From NCBI RefSeq assembly GCF_032463525.1, contig NZ_CP135971.1:868001-932000 (forward strand): a stretch of 64,000 bases of DNA. The letters run 5' to 3'. Both the position numbers and the translations under genes were made by a program. Numbering within the stretch: the stretch's first letter is position 1; each line of letters starts with the position of its first letter. A model generated the notes under the pieces. It saw only the letters and a program-made list of their open reading frames with translations, ran no database searches and was not told where the DNA came from. The stretch comes from Pseudomonas sp. DTU_2021_1001937_2_SI_NGA_ILE_001. Its GTDB lineage: Bacteria > Pseudomonadota > Gammaproteobacteria > Pseudomonadales > Pseudomonadaceae. This document shows, in pieces, positions 27,106-38,106 of this stretch.

Positions 27106-28782
27106 TCATGGGAGCAGCCAGCGGATCGCCGCCAGCAGCGCAAAGCCGGCCGCGAAGAGCAGCGGTCGCTTGGCCTTGCCGGCATGGCGTAACACCCACG
27201 CCCAGCCATGCTGAATCCAGGCTGCCGGGGAGTCACCACGGGTCACCACGTCGACGAAGCGGATGCCGCCAGCCAGGGTGAGCAGCCCCATCACCACACC
27301 GAGCGGCGCATGGGTCTGGCCCCAGGCGAACACCAGTGCCGCCGGTGCCAGGCAGGGCAGCAGATGGCGCAGCAGAAGCACGCCATTGCCGTCGCGTACC
27401 AGCCCCCTTGGCAGCAGGCGCATGCTCAATATCACGTCGGTCTGTACCAGCCCCTCGGCGACCTTCGACCAGAAGATACCCACCCAGGTCATGATCCAGA
27501 CCAGCACGTAAGCCATTACGGCCGTCGCGGGCAAGATGATCCAGAAACGCTCGTCGTTCCCGTGCGCATCCAGCTTCAAGACCAGGTACAGACACAGCCA
27601 GAGCATGCCCCACAGGTAGATGCGCGCCCAGCCCCAGTGACCCTTGGGTCGCCAGGCCTGCCAGTCGGCAACATAGCGGTGTTGCAGGCGCTCGGGCAGT
27701 GACGGGTCGTCGTGGATGTGGTGCGCGAGTTCTGCGCACGCCTCCCAGTCTTCCGAGATGAAGCGATCCGCCCACTGGCGGCGCTGGCCGGGCGTTAGGT
27801 CGGCCAGCAGGAACCACGCCGCGTTGTGTCGGGCGTCCTCGGGCGGGCGAGCCAGCAGTTGGCGCAACTCAGCCTCCAGTCGAGCGCTTTCATAGCGGCG
27901 CTGGACATCGGCCCATCGCTCTGCACTGCAAGGCAGGTAGCCCTGGATTTCGTCCCAGCCGGCCAGCGTGCAGAGCTGTTCGAAGAATGTCGGCGTCCAG
28001 TGCGCGTGGTTTTCCAGCAGCTCCAGCATCTGCGCCTTGAATCGATCACGGCGGTCCAGTGGTTGCAACCATTCACTGCTCAGTGCGCGGTGCAGGCTGT
28101 ACAGGGCCTGTTCTTCCTGCTGAGCATGCAGCGCCTGGTGAGCGTGGCGCAGGGCGCGGCTGGCCAGCCGCTGCGCGAGGATTTCCATCTCTGCATACGG
28201 CAGGTATTCGGGCTGTCTTGCCGTCAGCCAGCCCAGGTAGCGATGCGCCCAGTCCAGCGCTTCGTCGTCTGCCTGGTGCAGCAGACGCTGCAGCAGGTGT
28301 TTCTGGAACGACGCTTCGAGCCCGGCAGCCTGCGCTTGTGCCAGTCCTTCGTCGAGGCCGCCGCTGAACAGGCTCTCGATGCGCAGTGGCGGGCGCGAGT
28401 CGAGTTCCTCCAGCCTCGACGGCACGCTCTGGGTGAGCGGCAGTCCGGCAGCAGGGTGCGCTTCGGAGTCGCCGCCTTGTGCCTCGTACAGCCAGGCCGG
28501 GTCCGTCTCGCCATCCATGCCGCCAAGCGCGGTTTCTGCGGCTGGGGGCACGAAGGATTGCTCGTACCCGGCATCCTTGTCGAAGAACGTCTCGGACTCC
28601 TCGAAATCGCCGTGTTCGGCACGCCAACGTGCCTGGTCCAGGGCGCGCTCGTAGGCTTCGCGCAGGCGCTGGAAGGCCTGTGGGTCTTCGTCAGGGCGGT
28701 GGGTTTTCAGCAGGCGGGCATAGGCGCGCTTGATCTGGCGTTCATCGGCGTCTGCGGCAACGCCCAGTATTTCCCAATCCAT
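27106..28782 (-). CDS. Membrane-anchored J-domain protein, HscC partner
   Basis: 558-residue protein with an N-terminal J domain (about 1-50: MDWEILGVAADADERQIKRAYARLL) and a long helical middle. The C-terminal third holds several transmembrane helices (near 395-420, 425-455, 480-515, 535-555). The HPD signature reads HRPD (residues 28-31), i.e. an Arg between His and Pro, as in the divergent J proteins paired with HscC. It lies 8 bases after the hscC stop, so the two form an operon. The J protein would recruit HscC to the inner membrane. The client is unknown. Confidence 0.82.
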   Translation of the reverse strand: MDWEILGVAADADERQIKRAYARLLKTHRPDEDPQAFQRLREAYERALDQARWRAEHGDFEESETFFDKDAGYEQSFVPPAAETALGGMDGETDPAWLYEAQGGDSEAHPAAGLPLTQSVPSRLEELDSRPPLRIESLFSGGLDEGLAQAQAAGLEASFQKHLLQRLLHQADDEALDWAHRYLGWLTARQPEYLPYAEMEILAQRLASRALRHAHQALHAQQEEQALYSLHRALSSEWLQPLDRRDRFKAQMLELLENHAHWTPTFFEQLCTLAGWDEIQGYLPCSAERWADVQRRYESARLEAELRQLLARPPEDARHNAAWFLLADLTPGQRRQWADRFISEDWEACAELAHHIHDDPSLPERLQHRYVADWQAWRPKGHWGWARIYLWGMLWLCLYLVLKLDAHGNDERFWIILPATAVMAYVLVWIMTWVGIFWSKVAEGLVQTDVILSMRLLPRGLVRDGNGVLLLRHLLPCLAPAALVFAWGQTHAPLGVVMGLLTLAGGIRFVDVVTRGDSPAAWIQHGWAWVLRHAGKAKRPLLFAAGFALLAAIRWLLP

Positions 28783-28790
28783 GGCCGGCC

Positions 28791-30482
28791 TCAGAGTCGC
28801 TGCTCAAGACGGTCGAGGCGCTCGGTCAGCAGCACACGGGCCTCGCGGATCGCTCGTTCATCCTGGCGCTCCAGCTCATGCTGGAACTGCCGGGCCAGGT
28901 CGGCAACGTACTGGCGCGTGTCACCCAGGCTTTCCTGATACAAGCGCTCCATGCGTGCCATCAGCACCGTGTTGACCTGCTGGTCGCGTGGGTGCACCTT
29001 CAGCGCGGCGAGGCTTTCCAGGCGTTGGGCGATTTCCTCGGCGCTCAGCACGCCGGGATTGTTCTCGATCACCAGCGTGCGGCGCTCGTCGGTCAGCGGG
29101 ATGTGCACCTGGGCTTCGAGCAGGCCGTTGATGTCGTAGGTGAAGCGCACTTCGAGGCTGACTTCACCGGCAGGGCGGGGCGGCACAGGTACTTCAAGTT
29201 CGCCCAGGAAAATATTGTTTTTCACCAGTCGGCTCTCGCCCTGGAAGATGCGCACCTTCACCTTCGTTTGCCCGTCGTCGACGGTGTATACGGTCTGCAC
29301 CCGGCTGACCGGCACCACGCTGTTGCGTTCGATGATCGGCAGGTACAGCCCGTAGTCGCGGCGCAGGTCATCACCGGAAGTGGTTTCGATGCCCAGGGTG
29401 TAGGGGCAGACATCGGTGAGCACCACCTCTTCGAGCGAGGCATGGCGGGCCTTGAGGGCCGCCTGGATGGCCGCCCCCTGAGCCACCACCTCGTCAGGGT
29501 TGAGCTGCATGGCCGGAATGCGCCCGAACAGGCTGGCGACCAGCCGGCGCACCAGTGGCATACGCGTGGTACCACCCACGAGCAGTACTTCGTCGAGGTC
29601 GGCGGCCTTGATGCGCGCATCGCGCAAGGCACGTTCGATCGGCGCACGCAGGCGCTCCAGGAGGGGTTGCGCGAGGCGGGCCAGATCGTTCTGCGTGATG
29701 GTCAGCGCCCATTCGCGCTCGTCTTCGCGCACCGTAAAGGTGGCCTGTAGCTGCTGGCCCAAGGCATGGCGTACGCGCTGCGCTTCACGACGCAGGCGCT
29801 GCGCCATGCTGCCGTCGCTGGCGTTCGGCAGGCCCTGGGCCTGCGGCGAAGCGCGGAAATGCTCGGCCAGCAGGTCATCGAAGTCTTCGCCACCCAGGAA
29901 GTTGTCGCCAGCACTGGCGCGCACTTCCATGACGCCTTCGAACAGTTCTAGCACCGACACGTCGAAGGTCCCGCCGCCCAGGTCGAAGACCAGGAACGTC
30001 GCTTCTTCCTTGTGATGCAGACCGTAGGCCAGGGCTGCGGCAGTCGGCTCGTTGATCAGCTTCTCGACCTTCAGCCCCGCCAGTTCGCCGGCCACTCGCG
30101 TGGCCTTGCGCTGCGCATCGCTGAAATAGGCCGGCACGCTGATCACCGCTTCGGTGACCGGCTCACCTAGGTAGCGTTCGGCGTCTTCCTTGAGGCTGCG
30201 CAACAACAGGGCAGACAGCTCTTCGGCCCGATAGGGGCGGTGACCCAGCAGGGTTTCATGGGCACTGCCCATGTGCCGCTTGAACAGCGAGGCAGTGACC
30301 TGCGGGTGGGTCTGCAGGCGCTCGCGGGCGACGTCGCCGACGATCAGATGCCCGTTGTCGTCGAGCCCGACCACGCTGGGGGTGAGTACCTTGCCCAGCG
30401 CATTGGGAATCAGCTTGGCGGTTTCGCCGCTCCATACCGCCACCAGGCTGTTGGTGGTGCCCAGGTCGATGCCGATGATCAT
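28791..30482 (-). CDS. hscC: Hsp70-family chaperone HscC
   Basis: 563-residue Hsp70 close in length to E. coli HscC (about 556) and shorter than DnaK because the lid is reduced. Start ATG 30482 has AAGGAA six bases upstream. Nucleotide-binding motifs: GIDLGTTNSLVAVW, VFDLGGGTFDVSVLE and LLVGGTTRMPLVRRL. The linker and substrate domain follow (DVCPYTLGIET, then the NGLLEAQVHIPLTDERR strand). No NEF or DnaJ-type zinc-finger partner is nearby; the J-domain gene downstream is the likely cochaperone. The role of HscC in bacteria is poorly defined; stress adaptation has been proposed. Confidence 0.9.
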   Translation of the reverse strand: MIIGIDLGTTNSLVAVWSGETAKLIPNALGKVLTPSVVGLDDNGHLIVGDVARERLQTHPQVTASLFKRHMGSAHETLLGHRPYRAEELSALLLRSLKEDAERYLGEPVTEAVISVPAYFSDAQRKATRVAGELAGLKVEKLINEPTAAALAYGLHHKEEATFLVFDLGGGTFDVSVLELFEGVMEVRASAGDNFLGGEDFDDLLAEHFRASPQAQGLPNASDGSMAQRLRREAQRVRHALGQQLQATFTVREDEREWALTITQNDLARLAQPLLERLRAPIERALRDARIKAADLDEVLLVGGTTRMPLVRRLVASLFGRIPAMQLNPDEVVAQGAAIQAALKARHASLEEVVLTDVCPYTLGIETTSGDDLRRDYGLYLPIIERNSVVPVSRVQTVYTVDDGQTKVKVRIFQGESRLVKNNIFLGELEVPVPPRPAGEVSLEVRFTYDINGLLEAQVHIPLTDERRTLVIENNPGVLSAEEIAQRLESLAALKVHPRDQQVNTVLMARMERLYQESLGDTRQYVADLARQFQHELERQDERAIREARVLLTERLDRLEQRL

Positions 30483-31025
30483 GGTCGTTCCTTGTGTGTA
30501 TCGAATGCCAGGCGATATGACCACGAAGACGCAGAGAGTATCCAGAACGGGGAAAACATTTCGGCTCGCCCCCGAACCAGTCCTTGCAAGGTCGAAATGC
30601 CGCTCGAACGTGCCCAACGGGGTAAGGGCATGGAACCAGCGTGCCGGGAGTGGGTGGGCTAGGTGACTGCTAAACCAGTTGCCTTGGACGGGCTATGGAT
30701 GTTTGAGCAGGTGGGCATTTGTGGTGTTGCCGGAGACTCACTGAACAGATCCTTGGTTTCGAAGTGACATCATTTGATGGTCGTTCATGAAATCGTCAGC
30801 TAAGGCCGTCTGAGCTGTGCTGAAATAGCCTCCCGCTCAACCAATCTCACAAGCCTTGCCCATGAGTCAGATTGAGGGGTGGAAACCGCTCTGCCGGCGT
30901 CGAAACGCTGCTCACTGCGCGTTCAAGGCAACTTCTTCGGAGTTTTCCCAGATAAACCAGTCTTGACGGGTCGGCGCACCGCGGCCCGACAACAATACGT
31001 CTTCGCATTCCGAGTACCTGGAGTC
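30483..31025. other. Divergent intergenic region, hscC to SPFH operon
   Basis: About 540 bases without a convincing gene. It must contain both outward promoters. A perfect 5-base palindromic pair (CATCA-TT-TGATG, 30768-30779) sits mid-gap and could be an operator. I found no clear sigma-32 promoter upstream of hscC, nor a metal-sensor box upstream of the SPFH operon. In-frame upstream extension of the first SPFH gene to 30879 is open but lacks a ribosome-binding site. Confidence 0.5.
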
Positions 31026-32993
31026 ATGGTGAGTACAGTCCTGGATACCCCGGATCTACACAGCAAGCCTCGCTTTCTGCAAGCGCCCGAGCAGGCAAGG
31101 CACTTGGTCCGTCTGTGTCGATTGGCACTGGCTGGTGCTGGCGGGTTATGGCTGCTGGCGCTGCTGGTTGAGCTCTTTTCACCCGATGCCCACTGGGTCC
31201 CCCTGTTACGAGTGAATGCCGCCGCACTGTTGTTGCTGGCGGCCGCGGGGCACTCAGCCTGGTTCATTGTCAAGTGGCGGGTCGAGGCACAGGGGCAGCA
31301 GCCCCTGCGCCTGGCCTTCTGGCGAAACACCGGCCAGATGCAGGACGAAGACCAGCCCCTCAGTGCCTTCGACCGTTGGTTGGCGCGCACCGGTGATGCA
31401 CTGGCCAGGTGCTCGCGGTCGATCGGCCATGACGTGTTGTGGCTGTCGGGCTGGTCGGTGTTGGCGCTGGCACTGGTCATGGGCAGTTGGCGTTTCGACC
31501 TGCCGGCACCGGCCGCTGCCACTCAGGCAAGCTGGGTGGCAGTGGGCGTCTTGCTGGCACTGGCACTTGCGCTGCTGATCGTCGAAAGGCACCTGGCCTC
31601 GGCCAGCGAGGCGGACTGGCCGGAGGCGGTTGCCTTGGCGACAGTGGTCCGCGTGGTGATTCTGGTCCAGGTGCTGTCGATTCTCTGCCTGTTTTTTGCC
31701 GATGGCGCGCGGTTGTGGCCGGCCCGTCTGGCCGTGCTGATCGGCATACTGCCTGGCCTGTTGGCGGTGGAGTTCCTGGTGCGTGCGCTGGTCGCGGCAT
31801 TCCGGCCGCAACGGGCGGAGCAGGAGCCCGCCCTGGTGGCGCGTAGCCTGATGGGGGGCATGTTGCAATGGCCGCCGAGGCCGTTGGCCGCACTGCAGGG
31901 CGAGTTGCAGCAGCGCTTCGGTATCGACCTGCAGCAGGTCTGGGCTTTCGGTTTCATGCGCCGGGCGCTGCTACCCGTGGCCGCGCTGGTGGCGCTGGTC
32001 GGCTGGCTGCTGAGCGGGGTGGTGCAGGTGCCGCTGGAGGGGCGCGGTATCTATGAGCGATTCGGCAAGCCGGTGCAGGTTTATCCGCCGGGGTTGCATG
32101 TCGGCTTGCCCTGGCCGTTCGGACGGGTGCTGGCGGTGGAGAATGGTGTCATCCACGAGCTGGCGACCTCTGGTCGCGAGATGCTGGCCGACCCAATGGC
32201 CGGTGCTGAAGGGGAGGCGCCGATGTCGGCCAACCGCTTGTGGGACGCAACCCATGCCAGCGACAACGCCCAGGTGATCGCCGGCAGCGATGACGACCGG
32301 CAGAGCTTCCAGATCGTCAACATGGATGTGCGCTTCATTTACCGCATTGGCCTGGACGATGCCTCCGCCCTGGCGGCGACCTACCACAGCGCTGAAGTCG
32401 CGCAGTTGGTACGCAGCCTGGCCAACCGCGTACTGCTGCATGATTTCGCCAACCGGACATTGGACGGCGTGCTCGGCTCAGAGCGCGAGGCCCTCAGCCG
32501 TGACATCGGCAAGGCTGTGCAGGCTGACCTCGACCGGCTGGACAGCGGCGTGCAGATCCTGGCCACTTCCGTGGAGGCCATTCACCCACCCGCTGGCGCG
32601 GCGAATGCCTACCATGGCGTGCAGGCGGCGCAGATCACCGCGCAGGCACTGATCGCCCGTGATCGCGGTCAGGCCGCCGAGCAGACCGGCCAGGCCCGCC
32701 AGAATGCCGCGCTGCTGGTCGACCAGGCCGCTGGCAGCGCCCACGAAGCCCTCGCCAAGGCCCAGGCCGCAGAACTTGGCTTCAACGCCGAGCGGTCTGC
32801 CTGGCGACAGGCCGGGGCGGCGTTCGTGCTGGAACAGTACCTTGCGCGGTTGCGCGAAGGCCTGAGCAACAGCAAGGCTTTGATCATCGACCACCGCATC
32901 AGTGCCGGACAGGCCCCGACCCTTGACCTGCGCACCTTCGCCGCGCCAGTCGATCCGGCTACCTCGAAACACAACCAGGAGCGCACCCCTTGA
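31026..32993 (+). CDS. Large SPFH (HflK-like) protein with multi-helix N-terminal domain
   Basis: 655 residues. The first 300 or so hold about six hydrophobic helices (for example LCRLALAGAGGLWLLALLVE and VLALALVMGSWRF), an extension not found in ordinary HflK. A further helix (ALLPVAALVALVGWLLSG) then leads into the SPFH/Band 7 domain (VPLEGRGIYERFGKPVQVYPPGLHVGLPWPFGRV). A coiled-coil Ala/Gln-rich tail (AQALIARDRGQAAEQTGQARQNAALL) follows. ATG 31026 or GTG 31029 are both possible behind GGAG. Its stop overlaps the next gene by four bases. SPFH proteins form ring assemblies that compartmentalise membrane proteins; here the obvious client is the metal ATPase in the operon. Confidence 0.85.
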   Translation: MVSTVLDTPDLHSKPRFLQAPEQARHLVRLCRLALAGAGGLWLLALLVELFSPDAHWVPLLRVNAAALLLLAAAGHSAWFIVKWRVEAQGQQPLRLAFWRNTGQMQDEDQPLSAFDRWLARTGDALARCSRSIGHDVLWLSGWSVLALALVMGSWRFDLPAPAAATQASWVAVGVLLALALALLIVERHLASASEADWPEAVALATVVRVVILVQVLSILCLFFADGARLWPARLAVLIGILPGLLAVEFLVRALVAAFRPQRAEQEPALVARSLMGGMLQWPPRPLAALQGELQQRFGIDLQQVWAFGFMRRALLPVAALVALVGWLLSGVVQVPLEGRGIYERFGKPVQVYPPGLHVGLPWPFGRVLAVENGVIHELATSGREMLADPMAGAEGEAPMSANRLWDATHASDNAQVIAGSDDDRQSFQIVNMDVRFIYRIGLDDASALAATYHSAEVAQLVRSLANRVLLHDFANRTLDGVLGSEREALSRDIGKAVQADLDRLDSGVQILATSVEAIHPPAGAANAYHGVQAAQITAQALIARDRGQAAEQTGQARQNAALLVDQAAGSAHEALAKAQAAELGFNAERSAWRQAGAAFVLEQYLARLREGLSNSKALIIDHRISAGQAPTLDLRTFAAPVDPATSKHNQERTP

Positions 32994-34033
32994 GCCCCCA
33001 CGCCTCTCACGCTCACGATGACCCTGCGGCCCATGACTGCGTGCATGACCATGATCACGACCATGACCATGACAGCGATCACGACGGGCCAGCGCGACCG
33101 GCCTGGCCGCGGATCCTCGGGGCCGTGCTGCTGATGCTGCTGTTGGCGGCAGTGGCCTGTTTCGTCCAAGTGCGTATGGGCGAGGCCATGGTCATCACCC
33201 GCTTCGGCAACCCGTCACGGGTGTTGCTAGAACCAGGCCTGGCCTGGCGCTGGCCGCAGCCGTTCGAGGTGGCGGTGCCGGTCGACCTGCGCCTGCGCAC
33301 CACCTCCAGTGGATTGCACGATGTCGGCACCCGCGACGGCCTGCGCATCATCGTGCAGGCCTACATCGCCTGGCAGGTGTCGCCGGACCCGCAAGATATC
33401 CAGCGCTTCATGCGCGCAGTGCAGAACCAGCCGGACGAGGCGGCGCGGCAGATCCGCACACTGGTGGGCTCGGCGCTGGAAACCACCACCAGCGGCTTCG
33501 AATTGGCGGACCTGGTCAATGTCGACCCCGGACGCGTGCGCATCGAGGCCTTCGAACAGCGGTTGCAGGCGCAAATTGCCGATCAGTTGGCCCAGACCTA
33601 TGGCATCAAGGTGGTTCAGGTAGGGATCGAACGCCTCACCCTGCCCAAGGTGACCTTGGAAGCCACCGTCGACCGCATGCGCGCCGAGCGCGAGACGATC
33701 GCCACCGAGCGCACCGCCGAAGGCAAGCGCAAGGCGGCCGAGATCCGTTCGGCGGCCGAACGGGATGCGCGAATTCTCGAAGCCGACGCCACCGTGAAGG
33801 CGGCGCAGATCCAGGCACAGTCCCAGGTGGAGGCGGCGCAGATCTACGGCAAGGCCTACGCCAGCGCGCCTGAGCTTTACAAGCTGCTGCGCTCGCTGGA
33901 CACCCTGGGCACCATCGTGACGCCCGACACTCGCCTGGTGCTGCGCACCGATGCGGCACCGTTCCGGGCGCTGGTCGACGGACCCAACCCGCCGGCGTCG
34001 CTGAGCCGCGAAGCAGGTCAAGGCCATGACTAG
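32990..34033 (+). CDS. SPFH (HflC-like) protein with His/Asp-rich N-terminus
   Basis: 347 residues starting with TTG at 32990, which overlaps the preceding stop (TTGA) and has GGAG nine bases upstream. Residues 4-32 are rich in His and Asp (HAHDDPAAHDCVHDHDHD and on), a metal-binding type tail on the cytoplasmic side. A transmembrane helix follows (ILGAVLLMLLLAAVACFVQV) and then the SPFH domain (GEAMVITRFGNPSRVLLEPGLAWRWP). The C-terminal half is a long coiled coil (RAERETIATERTAEGKRKAAEIRSAAERDAR) as in HflC. The tail is the notable feature: the ATPase at the end of the operon has one too. Confidence 0.87.
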   Translation: MSPHASHAHDDPAAHDCVHDHDHDHDHDSDHDGPARPAWPRILGAVLLMLLLAAVACFVQVRMGEAMVITRFGNPSRVLLEPGLAWRWPQPFEVAVPVDLRLRTTSSGLHDVGTRDGLRIIVQAYIAWQVSPDPQDIQRFMRAVQNQPDEAARQIRTLVGSALETTTSGFELADLVNVDPGRVRIEAFEQRLQAQIADQLAQTYGIKVVQVGIERLTLPKVTLEATVDRMRAERETIATERTAEGKRKAAEIRSAAERDARILEADATVKAAQIQAQSQVEAAQIYGKAYASAPELYKLLRSLDTLGTIVTPDTRLVLRTDAAPFRALVDGPNPPASLSREAGQGHD

Positions 34034-35051
34034 CCCGCGCCAGCCTGCCGGCCCCTGGCTGCAGTCGGCGCGGATCGGTTTCATCGCCCTGTACGCGGTG
34101 ACCGTGCTCGCCGCGCTGGGCTGGTTGTTCGGCAATGTCCGTTCGGTAGGGCCGGAAAGCCGGGCCGTGGTGCTCAGGCTGGGGGCCGAGCAGCGTATCC
34201 AGAATGCTGGCCTGCTACTGGCTTGGCCACGTCCGTTCGAACAGGTGGTGATGCTGCCTTCGGATGGTCGGGTGACCGAGCGCAAGGTGGAGCTGTTGTT
34301 GCGCTCGGACTTCGCACATAAGGCGGACTTGGGGCTTGTGCCGGCCAGCGACGCGACGGCCGGGTCCGGTTACCTGCTCACGGCCGAAGCAGGCATCGTG
34401 CAGCTTGAGGTGCGGGTGTTCTACCAGGTCGTCGAGCCGTTTGCCTTTGCCCGTCAGGGCGTCCATGTGGATCCGGCGCTGGATCGCCTGGTCGAGCGCA
34501 ATGCCGTTCAGGTCTGCGCATCCCGAGACATGGATGCGATTCTGGTCGCGCGGCCTGAACTGGTAGGCGCCGATGCGCAGATTGCCGAGCGCCGTGAGCG
34601 TCTGCGTGGCGACTTGCAACAGGGCATCAACCGCAGCCTGGCGGCGCTCAAGGCGGCAGGCGCCGACCTGGGCATCACGGTGGTACGGGTCGATGTGCAA
34701 TCTTCGCTGCCGCCCTCGGCGGTCAGCGCTTTCAATGCCGTGCTCACCGCCAGCCAGCGCGCCGAGCAAGCGGTTGCGAGCGCCCGCAACGAGGCCGCGC
34801 AACGACTGCAGCAGGCCACCCAGAATGCCGAGCGCACCGTCCAGGTCGCGCAGGCCCAGGCGCGTGAACGGCTGGCGCAAGCCAGTGCCGCCACCAGCAC
34901 CATCGTCGGCCTGGCACAGCAGCAGGACCCTGGCCTGATGCTGCGGCTGTATCGCGAACGGGTGCCCGCCATCCTGTCCCGTGCGGGCTCTGTCACCACG
35001 GTCAATCCCGAGGACAGCGGGCATTTGATCCTGCAAGGCCCCAAACCATGA
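34026..35051 (+). CDS. SPFH (HflK/HflC-like) protein
   Basis: 341 residues, ATG 34026 overlapping the previous gene by eight bases. One N-terminal transmembrane helix (IGFIALYAVTVLAALGWLFG), then an SPFH domain (VGPESRAVVLRLGAEQRIQNAGLLLAWPRPFEQVV) and a C-terminal coiled coil (AEQAVASARNEAAQRLQQATQNAERTVQVAQAQ). There is no His-rich tail. With the two upstream proteins it would make a three-component SPFH assembly, whereas the FtsH-associated HflKC complex has two subunits. No hflX, ftsH or other hfl gene is adjacent, arguing that this is not the housekeeping HflKC. Confidence 0.86.
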   Translation: MTSPRQPAGPWLQSARIGFIALYAVTVLAALGWLFGNVRSVGPESRAVVLRLGAEQRIQNAGLLLAWPRPFEQVVMLPSDGRVTERKVELLLRSDFAHKADLGLVPASDATAGSGYLLTAEAGIVQLEVRVFYQVVEPFAFARQGVHVDPALDRLVERNAVQVCASRDMDAILVARPELVGADAQIAERRERLRGDLQQGINRSLAALKAAGADLGITVVRVDVQSSLPPSAVSAFNAVLTASQRAEQAVASARNEAAQRLQQATQNAERTVQVAQAQARERLAQASAATSTIVGLAQQQDPGLMLRLYRERVPAILSRAGSVTTVNPEDSGHLILQGPKP

Positions 35052-35088
35052 ACGCCTATTCTGGCCCCTGCACCTGGAACCCCGGACG

Positions 35089-37044
35089 ATGAGCGCCCAC
35101 CATCAGCACGGTCATCACCACCACGGTCATCACCATCATGGCCATGTCCATCTCACCTCGGGTCTGCTGTCTCGGGACGAGCGCCGGCAGGCCGCACGCC
35201 AGTTGACCTTGGCTATGGTCGCCCTCGGGCTGCTGGCGCTGGGCTTGGCCTGGCAAAGCCTGGCCCCAGACCAGGAAGGCGTGGCGCAGTTGCTGTTGGG
35301 CGCTGCGTCGTTGCTGGTGGCCGTACCGGTGCTGGGCTCGGCGTGGCACAGCCTCAAGCAACCGAGCCTGCATGGCGTCACCGACCAGTTGATCGCGCTG
35401 GCCATGCTCGGCGCCTGGGCCATTGGCGACCTGACCACCGCCGCCTTGTTGCCGATCATCATGATCTTCGGGCACGTGCTCGAAGAGCGCAGCATGCTGG
35501 GCTCGCAGGAAGCCATCGACGCCCTAGGCCGCCTCACACGCAGCCAGGCGCGGCTGATCGGTGCCAACGGCGAGGTGAGCGAGGTCGACAACGCCAGCCT
35601 CAAGGCGGGGGACCGGGTAGAGGTACGAGCCGGTGACCGGGTGCCGGCCGATGGTCGTGTCCTCGAAGGCCAGGCCAGCCTCGATACCGCGCCCATCACC
35701 GGGGAGTCCTTGCCGCAGGAGGTCGCGCCGGGTGCGCCTGTGCATGCAGGCGCAATCAACCTCGATGGCTTGCTGCGCATCGAGGTGACCGCCACCGGCG
35801 AGGACTCCGCGCTGGGCAAGGTGATTGCCCTGATGCGCCGCGCAGAGCAGGCCAAGCCCCCCATCACCCGGCTGCTCGAACGCTACGCCGGGCGTTACCT
35901 GCTGCTGGTGCTGATGATCGCGGCGGCCACCTGGTTCATCACCGGCGATGCCCAGGCCATGCTGGCCGTGCTGGTGGCGGCTTGTCCGTGCGCACTGGTG
36001 CTCTCAGCCCCGGCCACAGCCATTGCCGGGGTCGCCGTTGCGGCGCGGCATGGCATTCTGATTCGTGGCTCTGCGTTTCTCGAAGAGCTGGCCGACCTGT
36101 CGTCGCTGGTGATCGACAAAACCGGCACCCTGACCCAAGGGGCACTGCACCTGCAACAGATCGTGAGCAGCCAGACCGAGGTGGCGGAGCACCAGGTGCT
36201 GCGCCTGGCTGCCAGCCTGGGCACGGCGAGCAGCCACCCGGTCAGTCGCGCCTTGGCCAAGTCCGTTCCCCGCGACCAGCACCTTGCGCTTGCCGAATTG
36301 CACGAGATGCAAGGTTTCGGTGTGGTTGCTTCGACCGAACAAGGCCAGGCCGCGCTGGGGCGTGCGGAGCTATTTGAGAAGCTGGATATCGCCTTGCCGG
36401 CGGTGCCGGAGCACGATGGCCCGATCGTTGGCCTGGCACTGCACGGACGTTTTCTCGCCTGGCTGCTGCTGGCCGACAATGTACGCCGGGAAGCGCCTGA
36501 AGCGTTGGCGCAACTGCGCGAGCTGGGGCTGCGCCGGCAGTTGCTGCTGACCGGCGACCGACGCAGCGTGGCGCAGTGGGTGGCGAGCCAGGTGGGCATC
36601 ACCCATGTGGTCGCCCAGGCGTTGCCGGAAGACAAGCTCAAGCAGGTCAATCAGGAAATCCAGGCCGGTTTCAGGCCGATGGTGGTGGGCGACGGCATCA
36701 ACGACTCGCTGGCGCTCAAGGCGGGCGTCGTGGGTGTCGCCATCGGTGCGGGCGGAACCGACATCGCCATGGCTGCGGCGGACATCGTACTGATCAATGG
36801 TGACCTGCGCCGCCTGGCCACCGGTGTGCGTCTCAGCCGCCTGTGTCGGCGGACTCTGCAATGGAATGTGCTGATCGGCCTCGGCTGGACGGTGGGAATC
36901 ATGCTGGCGGCGGCATTCGGGCTGTTGGGTGCGGCCGGCGCGATGATCGCGGCGCTGTTGCACAACCTCAGTACCTTGCTGGTGCTCGGCAATGCCGGTC
37001 GGCTGCTGCGCTACGATGAAAGGGACGAGGTACCGGTGTCGTGA
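35089..37044 (+). CDS. P1B-type heavy-metal ATPase with His-rich N-terminus
   Basis: 651-residue metal-translocating P-type ATPase. Residues 4-21 are mostly His; no CxxC heavy-metal-associated domain precedes the membrane part. Key motifs: TGES (204-207), the TM metal site Cys299-Pro300-Cys301, phosphorylated Asp343 in DKTGTLTQG, the nucleotide-binding His383-Pro384, and GDGIND near 540. The last helix reads LLHNLSTLLVLGNAGRLL: His-Asn stands where zinc/cadmium pumps have an Asp and cobalt-type pumps His-Glu. Metal and direction are therefore open. From memory it resembles the P. aeruginosa HmtA importer of copper and zinc. It ends a four-gene operon with three SPFH proteins. Confidence 0.9.
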   Translation: MSAHHQHGHHHHGHHHHGHVHLTSGLLSRDERRQAARQLTLAMVALGLLALGLAWQSLAPDQEGVAQLLLGAASLLVAVPVLGSAWHSLKQPSLHGVTDQLIALAMLGAWAIGDLTTAALLPIIMIFGHVLEERSMLGSQEAIDALGRLTRSQARLIGANGEVSEVDNASLKAGDRVEVRAGDRVPADGRVLEGQASLDTAPITGESLPQEVAPGAPVHAGAINLDGLLRIEVTATGEDSALGKVIALMRRAEQAKPPITRLLERYAGRYLLLVLMIAAATWFITGDAQAMLAVLVAACPCALVLSAPATAIAGVAVAARHGILIRGSAFLEELADLSSLVIDKTGTLTQGALHLQQIVSSQTEVAEHQVLRLAASLGTASSHPVSRALAKSVPRDQHLALAELHEMQGFGVVASTEQGQAALGRAELFEKLDIALPAVPEHDGPIVGLALHGRFLAWLLLADNVRREAPEALAQLRELGLRRQLLLTGDRRSVAQWVASQVGITHVVAQALPEDKLKQVNQEIQAGFRPMVVGDGINDSLALKAGVVGVAIGAGGTDIAMAAADIVLINGDLRRLATGVRLSRLCRRTLQWNVLIGLGWTVGIMLAAAFGLLGAAGAMIAALLHNLSTLLVLGNAGRLLRYDERDEVPVS

Positions 37045-37191
37045 GGCAGCTCACTGCTCGCATCGCGAAACCTCCCGTGATTGGGCTGCTTCAGGGGGCT
37101 GGCTCAGTAGCTGAGCACTCGCTTTGGCAGCGGCACGATGCGCTTGCTGTCCAAATACTCAGGTTTCACTGAACACCTATCGCCAATCCGA

Positions 37192-38106
37192 TCAGAGACT
37201 ATCGGGATCCCCGAAGAACATCTGAATCCGCGAGCGCAACCAGCGCTCCGCCGGGTCGTTGTCCTGGGCGCCGCGCCAGGCCATGTGCAGTTCGAAGGTC
37301 TGCGATTCCAGTGGCAGGTCTTCGGCGCGTACGCCGCCGCTGGCGGTAAGCACTTCGGCGGCGTAGTCGGGGACGGTGGCGAGGATGTCGGTGCCGGCCA
37401 GCAGGGTCGAGAGGCCATTGAACTGCGGTACGGCGAGCACCACGTGGCGTTTGCGACCGATCTTTTCCAGGTGTTCGTCGATGAATCCCGACAGGTCGCC
37501 GGCGAAGGACACCAAGGCGTGCGGGCGGTTGCAGAAGTCGTCGAGGCTCAGCGGGCCGGGCACGGTGTCGGCGCGCAGCAGTCGTGGGCGGCTGCGGCGC
37601 AGCACCTTGCGCTTGGCATTGGCGGGCAGGTCGCTGGTGTAGCTGACCCCCACGGAGATTTCGCCCGAGGCCAGCAGGGCGGGCATGAGGATGTAGTTGA
37701 CTCGGCGGATCACCAGCACGATGCCTGGTGCTTCGGAGCGCAGGCGCTTGAGCAGCGAGGGCAGCAGGGCGAATTCGACCTCGTCGGACAGGCCTATACG
37801 GAATACCGCATTGCTGGTCGCCGGGTCGAACTCGGCGGCGCGGCTCACGGCCGTGGAGATAGAGTCCAGGGCCGGGGAGAGCAGGGCGAAGATTTCCGAG
37901 GCCCGGGCGGTGGGTTCCATGCTGCGCCCGGTGCGCACGAACAGCGGGTCGTCGAACAGGCCACGCAAGCGTGACAGGGCGGCGCTGATCGCCGGCTGGC
38001 CGAGGAACAGCTTCTCGGCGGCACGGGTCACGCTGCGCTCATGCATCAGGGTTTCGAAGACGATCAGCAGGTTGAGGTCGACGCGACGCAGGTCGTTGCG
38101 GTTCAT
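37192..38106 (-). CDS. mexT: LysR-type activator MexT
   Basis: 304-residue LysR regulator, the length of P. aeruginosa MexT. The N-terminus NDLRRVDLNLLIVFETL, the helix-turn-helix ERSVTRAAEKLFLGQPAISA and the C-terminal AWRGAQDNDPAERWLRSRI match MexT as I remember it almost residue for residue. MexT activates mexEF-oprN and the neighbouring oxidoreductase gene under disulfide/electrophile stress. Start ATG 38106. It is divergent from mexS, as in P. aeruginosa, but here mexEF-oprN lies about 33 kb away. No frameshift was seen, so the protein should be functional. Confidence 0.93.
   Translation of the reverse strand: MNRNDLRRVDLNLLIVFETLMHERSVTRAAEKLFLGQPAISAALSRLRGLFDDPLFVRTGRSMEPTARASEIFALLSPALDSISTAVSRAAEFDPATSNAVFRIGLSDEVEFALLPSLLKRLRSEAPGIVLVIRRVNYILMPALLASGEISVGVSYTSDLPANAKRKVLRRSRPRLLRADTVPGPLSLDDFCNRPHALVSFAGDLSGFIDEHLEKIGRKRHVVLAVPQFNGLSTLLAGTDILATVPDYAAEVLTASGGVRAEDLPLESQTFELHMAWRGAQDNDPAERWLRSRIQMFFGDPDSL

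What the first reader, a model, noticed from the sequence alone, without database searches (positions are those of the whole stretch)
31026..37044. Three SPFH proteins in one operon with a metal ATPase
Four overlapping or closely spaced genes encode three different stomatin/HflK-HflC-like proteins and a P1B ATPase. SPFH rings enclose membrane proteases such as FtsH; here the natural client is the pump. A dedicated SPFH cage around a metal transporter would be a new arrangement, perhaps controlling its turnover, lipid setting or metal loading.
Basis: partly seen in the sequence, partly recalled or inferred. Interest (0 to 1): 0.7.

Follow-up and report, generated by a model that had tools for sequence, protein, structure and literature searches.

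The report
Metal pump with dedicated SPFH trio
Three cage-forming membrane proteins and a zinc/copper-type pump are encoded side by side and kept together wherever they were found, which suggests that the cage proteins work on the pump, although no experiment has yet tested this.

The parts
31026..32993 (+). SPFH1: predicted six-helix CDF-fold-like N-domain (about residues 16-260), linker, membrane helix (306-329), HflK-like SPFH domain and coiled coil
   Evidence: Band_7 73.2 bits; AF2 models; Foldseek and VIA matches
31026..31835 (+). N-domain of SPFH1 (residues 1-270): YiiP/ZnT-like fold predicted, no detectable CDF sequence homology
32990..34033 (+). SPFH2: HflC-like, His-rich N-terminal tail ahead of its single predicted membrane helix
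   Evidence: Band_7 115.6 bits; HflC model 109.1 bits, under its 134.4 cut-off; hydropathy; tail in 77 of 78 loci
32990..33109 (+). His-rich N-terminal tail of SPFH2 (about residues 1-40), inferred to be cytoplasmic
   Evidence: translation; conservation; absent from the genome's own HflC
34026..35051 (+). SPFH3: HflK-like, one predicted membrane helix
   Evidence: Band_7 59.9 bits; HflK model 81.9 bits, under its 159.4 cut-off; hydropathy
35089..37044 (+). P1B ATPase: His-rich N-tail in this window, CPC membrane motif, HNLST in the last helix, intact DKTGT, TGE and GDGIND
   Evidence: TIGR01525 and TIGR01512 over cut-off; A2 alignment; alignment to solved P1B ATPases
30618..31025 (+). 5' region of the module; lacks the Zur-box-like palindrome found upstream in Pseudomonas relatives
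   Evidence: best match in 550 nt upstream has 4 mismatches; no match to a second form in the whole window

Best explanation
The locus is a four-gene zinc/copper-uptake module. SHOWN by sequence: the three SPFH proteins and the HmtA-type P1B ATPase are kept together, in one order, with little intergenic space. INFERRED: the three SPFH proteins form a hetero-oligomeric HflK/HflC-like assembly, with the SPFH domains on the periplasmic side, dedicated to the pump. Its membrane sector, enlarged by the CDF-fold-like domain of SPFH1, holds the pump in a bounded membrane patch. SPFH1-specific periplasmic histidines and the His-rich SPFH2 tails on the cytoplasmic side bind metal on the two sides of the membrane, so that metal entering or leaving the pump is buffered locally. 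In most Pseudomonas relatives the module is probably switched on in zinc starvation through Zur; in this genome the Zur-box-like site is missing.
For: SPFH1 and the pump occupy the same 88 of 149 same-genus genomes, same contig and strand, 2006-2185 bp apart, with no genome having only one of them at the cut-offs used. SPFH2 and the pump occupy the same 11 of 398 genomes of the phylum, and all 11 pump loci have SPFH3 next to the pump. All 86 named genome or plasmid loci have SPFH2-SPFH3-pump in order on one strand and 85 of 86 also SPFH1. Copies on Rhizobium, Burkholderia, Paraburkholderia and Klebsiella plasmids keep the same four. SPFH2 has 5 or more His in its first 40 aa in 77 of 78 loci and in the first 45 aa of 112 of 120 listed homologues; the genome's HflC has no such tail. 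H377, H410, H520 and H530 of SPFH1 are conserved in 84-86 of 86 and are not His in the 12 HflK sequences aligned with it. SPFH1's N-domain model matches the zinc-transporter fold. A Zur-box-like site is within 1 mismatch in 71 of 73 Pseudomonas loci. In P. aeruginosa the cluster rises in a znuA mutant (PMC4542158 Table 2), Zur binds the PA2439 promoter in vitro (PMC8531726), and the proteins rise in zinc depletion (PMC11761036).
Against: No physical association has been tested. Co-inheritance also fits a shared task without contact. One study saw no change of hmtA mRNA on adding zinc (PMC8531726). HmtA as an importer rests on overexpression, and a review asks for confirmation (PMC10393844). 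The Zur-like site is absent from this window, and only 1 of 30 Burkholderiaceae loci and 0 of 6 plasmid loci came within 3 mismatches of the form tried. The fold match has no sequence support (hhalign 0.2%), Foldseek E-values for the N-domain alone are only 0.08-0.18, the CDF metal-site residues are not conserved, and the best Pfam match among the 39 N-domains is a different family, Polysacc_synt, in 4 of them at best E 0.0002. Deleting the trio in P. aeruginosa gave only slight phenotypes, with no metal assay among the listed methods (PMC13086221). Klebsiella SPFH2 lacks the His tail. The pump itself is His-rich in only 11 of 77 loci. The sequence of PA2435 itself was not compared.
Confidence: 0.5

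Rival explanations
1. The trio is a second HflK/HflC-type FtsH adaptor. In zinc starvation it governs FtsH access to membrane proteins, above all the turnover of the pump, rather than housing the pump for transport.
For: SPFH1 and SPFH3 are HflK-like and SPFH2 HflC-like; HflK/HflC enclose FtsH (PMC12048511, passages); FtsH is a zinc peptidase, and PMC11761036 and PMC9431628 draw that link in passing.
Against: All three fall under the HflK/HflC equivalog cut-offs. No FtsH gene is listed in the flanks of four annotated plasmid copies, whose gene tables are incomplete. The arginine of the HflK ALRGV stretch is kept in the genome's own HflK but not in SPFH1 or SPFH3, though the paper's Arg191 does not map exactly onto it. 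The extra membrane domain and His features need another reason.
Confidence: 0.25
2. Shared regulation without contact: the SPFH proteins are an envelope or membrane-organising response to zinc starvation that happens to share the pump's operon.
For: Zinc-starvation regulons hold unrelated proteins (PMC9431628 Table 2 passages). Slight biofilm and virulence effects of trio deletion (PMC13086221).
Against: Exact co-occurrence in two surveys and retention of all four on plasmids of other classes are stronger than co-regulation needs.
Confidence: 0.15
3. The pump exports metal into the periplasm, and the SPFH assembly delivers it to periplasmic client proteins; the His tail of SPFH2 feeds the pump from the cytoplasm.
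For: P1B ATPases usually export (stated in PMC10393844); conserved His in SPFH2's tail and in the SPFH part of SPFH1; the Paraburkholderia sprentiae copy lies beside a copper chaperone gene and a metal ABC transporter.
Against: Overexpressed HmtA raised cell Zn and Cu (PMC10393844 citing Lewinson 2009); induction by zinc starvation fits uptake; the sprentiae neighbours recur in none of 31 other Burkholderiaceae loci, apart from one 31% GntR match.
Confidence: 0.1

Closest known systems
P. aeruginosa hmtA locus PA2434-PA2439 (PaFlo5-6-7 plus HmtA)
   Same: SPFH trio in the locus of a P1B ATPase; database hits named P. aeruginosa are 61% identical to SPFH1 (P0034) and 76% to SPFH2 (P0149); zinc-starvation response in print
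   Different: The window has no Zur-box-like site and the pump follows SPFH3 after 37 nt, whereas by numbering PA2436 lies between in P. aeruginosa; the passages seen do not describe pump and trio as an obligate unit or the SPFH1 N-domain
HflK-HflC cage of FtsH (E. coli)
   Same: SPFH domains, coiled coils and HflK/HflC-like pairing
   Different: Three proteins instead of two, a six-helix extra membrane domain, a His-rich tail and a pump in the operon; under the equivalog cut-offs; the genome has its own hflK-hflC elsewhere
Stomatin domes around aquaporin-1 and urea transporter-B
   Same: An SPFH assembly enclosing a transporter in a membrane patch (PMC12407830, abstract and section 8)
   Different: One SPFH protein, eukaryotic; here three SPFH genes share an operon with the presumed client
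Bacterial SPFH-NfeD pairs such as QmcA-YbbJ
   Same: An SPFH protein encoded with a membrane partner (PMC13086221 introduction passage; 8z5g)
   Different: The partner there is NfeD, here a P-type ATPase
CDF zinc transporters (YiiP, ZnT)
   Same: Predicted six-helix fold of the SPFH1 N-domain
   Different: No sequence homology and no DD-HD metal site found; fused to an SPFH domain
P1B ATPases ZntA (4umv) and 7qbz
   Same: Catalytic motifs; CPC as in ZntA; last-helix His as in 7qbz
   Different: ZntA's last-helix Asp is replaced by His; 7qbz has SPC where this has CPC; HN in place of HE

Membership tests
SPFH / Band_7 superfamily | Band_7 domain over the Pfam cut-off | tested here: met
   All three proteins
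HflK/HflC, FtsH modulators | NCBIfam equivalog cut-offs for HflK or HflC | tested here: not met
   SPFH1 63.1 of 159.4, SPFH2 109.1 of 134.4, SPFH3 81.9 of 159.4 bits
HflK/HflC, FtsH modulators | Conserved FtsH contact | tested here: inconclusive
   ALR arginine kept in own HflK, not in SPFH1/SPFH3; numbering does not match the paper's Arg191
HflK/HflC, FtsH modulators | Binding to FtsH | not testable with these tools
   Needs pull-down
Heavy-metal P1B ATPase | TIGR01525/TIGR01512 over cut-off and catalytic motifs | tested here: met
   523.7 of 346.25 and 484.1 of 313.5 bits; DKTGT, TGE, GDGIND
ZntA-type (P1B-2) exporter | ZntA equivalog cut-off and last-helix Asp | tested here: not met
   285.2 of 1240 bits; Asp position is His
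HmtA importer of P. aeruginosa | Orthology to PA2435 | tested here: inconclusive
   Locus order and named SPFH1/SPFH2 hits agree; PA2435 sequence not compared
HmtA importer of P. aeruginosa | Inward transport of Zn and Cu | not testable with these tools
   Only literature passages
Zur regulon | Zur-box-like palindrome upstream | tested here: not met
   Absent in this window, though within 1 mismatch in 71 of 73 Pseudomonas loci
CDF transporters | CDF six-helix fold | tested here: met
CDF transporters | CDF sequence profile | tested here: not met
   hhalign probability 0.2% against 31 CDF sequences, split-CDF control 100%; no Pfam family for the window domain at E <= 10
CDF transporters | DD-HD metal site | tested here: not met
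   The CDF consensus keeps a D and H...D; the N-domain conserves no His or Asp in its helices 2 and 5; judged by helix order, no residue-level superposition

The most novel reading that the evidence does not exclude
A bacterial SPFH chamber made of three dedicated subunits encloses a P1B metal pump, and one subunit has absorbed a zinc-transporter-fold membrane domain that no longer transports but lines the chamber's membrane sector. Periplasmic His sites and a ring of cytoplasmic His-rich tails make the chamber a metal-channelling compartment. As far as the searches show, it would be the first bacterial SPFH assembly described as dedicated to a transporter rather than a protease, and it is encoded as a cassette that also travels on plasmids.
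Probability: 0.3. Interest if true: 0.85.

Novelty: new variant of a known kind. Interest (0 to 1): 0.62.

Why it matters
What bacterial SPFH proteins do beyond FtsH is an open question, and eukaryotic stomatin was only recently seen enclosing transporters. A cassette in which three SPFH genes stay with one metal pump gives a genetically simple system in which to ask what an SPFH enclosure does for a transporter. It may also help explain why HmtA appears unusual among P1B ATPases, and it predicts a metal phenotype for the PaFlo5-6-7 deletion strain, which already exists.

Tried and rejected
Zur box in the window: looked for with two consensus forms, not found at the module; one search gave three 2-mismatch matches elsewhere in the window and none at 1 or 0. 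Whole-genome Zur-like sites exist elsewhere, but with up to 2 mismatches the reversed-pattern control gives as many matches or more (32 against 38 over both strands), so only the 1-mismatch palindromes are worth anything.

Mobility scars at the module's ends: short imperfect repeats only, nothing that clearly brackets the module, and G+C like the surroundings. Sigma-70 promoter scan of 30400-37400: 0 found.

Shared metal genes around the module in Burkholderiaceae: the P. sprentiae neighbours are in 0 of 31 other loci, apart from one 31% GntR match.

CDF homology of the SPFH1 N-domain by Pfam (25 of 39 matched families shown, so a single weak Cation_efflux hit could be hidden) and by hhalign: none seen. 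Free-standing relatives of the N-domain: the search with A5 gave 5 proteins; one is named as an SPFH protein and the others were not examined individually.

Paper searches for SPFH with P-type ATPase/HflK/operon (0 papers), HflK with HmtA (3, 2 listed), SPFH with metal and P-type ATPase (4), CDF with SPFH/HflK (first 15 of 177 seen) and SPFH with encapsulate/transporter/operon (4) showed, in titles and abstract starts, no description of the obligate unit or of the fusion. The library lacks most subscription journals.

Own errors corrected: one search scanned the wrong strand for minus-strand G loci (redone, where a motif check of orientation held for 72 of 74 loci); one search used wrong-strand HflK translations (redone).
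Full report
Observation. SPFH2 starts at a TTG after an AGGAG, and most of the relatives start with the same kind of tail, which supports that start. Band_7 is over cut-off in all three, and the ATPase is a heavy-metal P1B ATPase. The genome (5.66 Mb, two contigs) has six Band_7 matches in all: these three, the housekeeping hflK-hflC pair near 4.35 Mb, and one more at 3.77 Mb.

Linkage. SPFH1 was found at E <= 1e-40 in 88 of 149 same-genus genomes and the ATPase at E <= 1e-140 in 88 of 149 (same handles, 20 of the 61 misses listed each time). The two sets are identical, always on the same contig and strand, 2006 to 2185 bp apart, median 2128 (for G034, where SPFH1 matches in two adjoining pieces, the nearer piece was used). 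In 398 genomes across the phylum the ATPase (E <= 1e-130) and SPFH2 (E <= 1e-60) were found in the same 11. All ATPase matches listed there had E of 1e-259 or lower, so there were no borderline cases, and SPFH3 adjoins the ATPase in all 11 loci. A class-level sample found SPFH1 (E <= 1e-15) only in the window's own genome, 1 of 274, so the module is patchy. With six plasmid loci, out of 10 plasmid hits, all 86 show SPFH2-SPFH3-ATPase in order on one strand and 85 also SPFH1; L041 shows no SPFH1 match, and five loci (L061, L076, L098, L101 and L103) show split or contig-cut matches. With starts chosen by script, SPFH2/SPFH3 overlap in 72 of 78 loci and SPFH3/ATPase in 57 of 77 (loci whose ORF the script could not resolve were dropped, 8 for SPFH2 and 9 for the ATPase). 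Pairwise distances of the four proteins correlate at r 0.89-0.97 over 29 non-redundant loci. Genomes are related by descent, so these counts are not independent events, but the plasmid copies in Rhizobium, Burkholderia, Paraburkholderia and Klebsiella show that the four travel together.

SPFH2 tail. 77 of 78 loci have at least 5 His in the first 40 residues; the exception is Klebsiella. Among 120 listed database homologues 112 have at least 5 in the first 45, and six of the other eight start inside or next to the membrane helix. SPFH1 and SPFH3 have no such tail in any of 85 and 86 loci, and the ATPase has one in only 11 of 77. The genome's own HflC begins directly with its membrane helix. By HflK/HflC topology (recalled) this tail faces the cytoplasm.

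ATPase. Catalytic motifs are intact. The metal path is mixed: CPC as in ZntA and the copper efflux ATPase 3rfu, while the last helix reads HNLST where ZntA has DTGAT and 7qbz HEGST. H625 and N626 are invariant in the five-member alignment and H625 in 77 of 78. This fits a metal choice unlike plain Zn/Cd or Cu exporters (inference).

Regulation. A palindrome of the form TGTTATATCGTAACG lies upstream of SPFH1 within 1 mismatch of a degenerate consensus in 71 of 73 Pseudomonas loci (24 unnamed same-genus, 49 named), and at 2 mismatches in the other two; in 1480 mononucleotide shuffles 2 reached 1 mismatch. The consensus was drawn up on these loci, so only the shuffle contrast counts. In Burkholderiaceae the site is mostly not seen: with the form TGTTATANNATAACA 1 of 30 loci, and 0 of 6 plasmid loci, came within 3 mismatches. 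The window's upstream region has at best 4 mismatches, so this genome's copy seems to have lost the site, although its closest relative, G127, keeps one.

What is in print. In P. aeruginosa PA2434, PA2435 and PA2437-2439 rise 5.6 to 14.4-fold in a znuA mutant (PMC4542158, Table 2 passage); Zur binds the PA2439 promoter in vitro, yet hmtA mRNA did not respond to added zinc (PMC8531726, passages); the proteins are higher on zinc depletion, significantly for some (PMC11761036, passages); N-acetylcysteine raises PA2437-2439 by 0.6-0.8 log2 units (PMC9431628, passages). PMC13086221 (outline, passages, section 3.3) deleted the trio as PaFlo5-6-7 and reports no change of growth in rich medium, about 20% less biofilm and some attenuation in moth larvae. 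In it the terms HmtA, P-type and ATPase have no occurrence, and no metal assay appears among its listed methods. It reports this operon in only two of ten reference Pseudomonas species, suggests horizontal transfer of the operon, and states an absence of conserved operon organisation for PaFlo genes in general; the present survey shows strict conservation of this locus where it occurs. Stomatin domes enclosing AQP1 and UT-B (PMC12407830, abstract and section 8) are the precedent for an SPFH assembly around a transporter.

Judgement. The genetic unit is established. Function in zinc/copper uptake is likely by regulation and by the P. aeruginosa literature. Enclosure of the pump is the most economical reading of the anatomy but remains inference; an FtsH-adaptor reading is the main rival. 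The case is a new variant of the SPFH kind, with a noteworthy fused membrane domain.

Noticed in passing
window 27106-30617 (-): An Hsp70 of the DnaK/HscA-like kind and a J-domain protein, which by eye has membrane helices, lie divergently upstream of the module.
   Followed up: no
L141 (G000:C1:3690000-3699500), site near 3694770: A Zur-box-like palindrome with one mismatch lies just upstream of an ORF that looks by eye like a COG0523/CobW GTPase, so the genome may keep a Zur regulon although the module here lacks the site.
   Followed up: partly
L042 and L065: Paraburkholderia sp. BL21I4N1 carries two divergent copies of the four-gene module.
   Followed up: no
L076 and L098: In P. lactucae and P. 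kitaguniensis the SPFH3 match (and in L076 also the ATPase match) is split into two pieces, perhaps breaks or assembly errors.
   Followed up: no
L036 (Klebsiella aerogenes plasmid pYD-K10_1): The module sits on a conjugative plasmid near a Tn3 transposase, and its SPFH2 lacks the His-rich tail.
   Followed up: partly
G034:C1:934964-936873: SPFH1 matches in two adjoining pieces in one same-genus genome, as if N-domain and SPFH part were separate frames.
   Followed up: no
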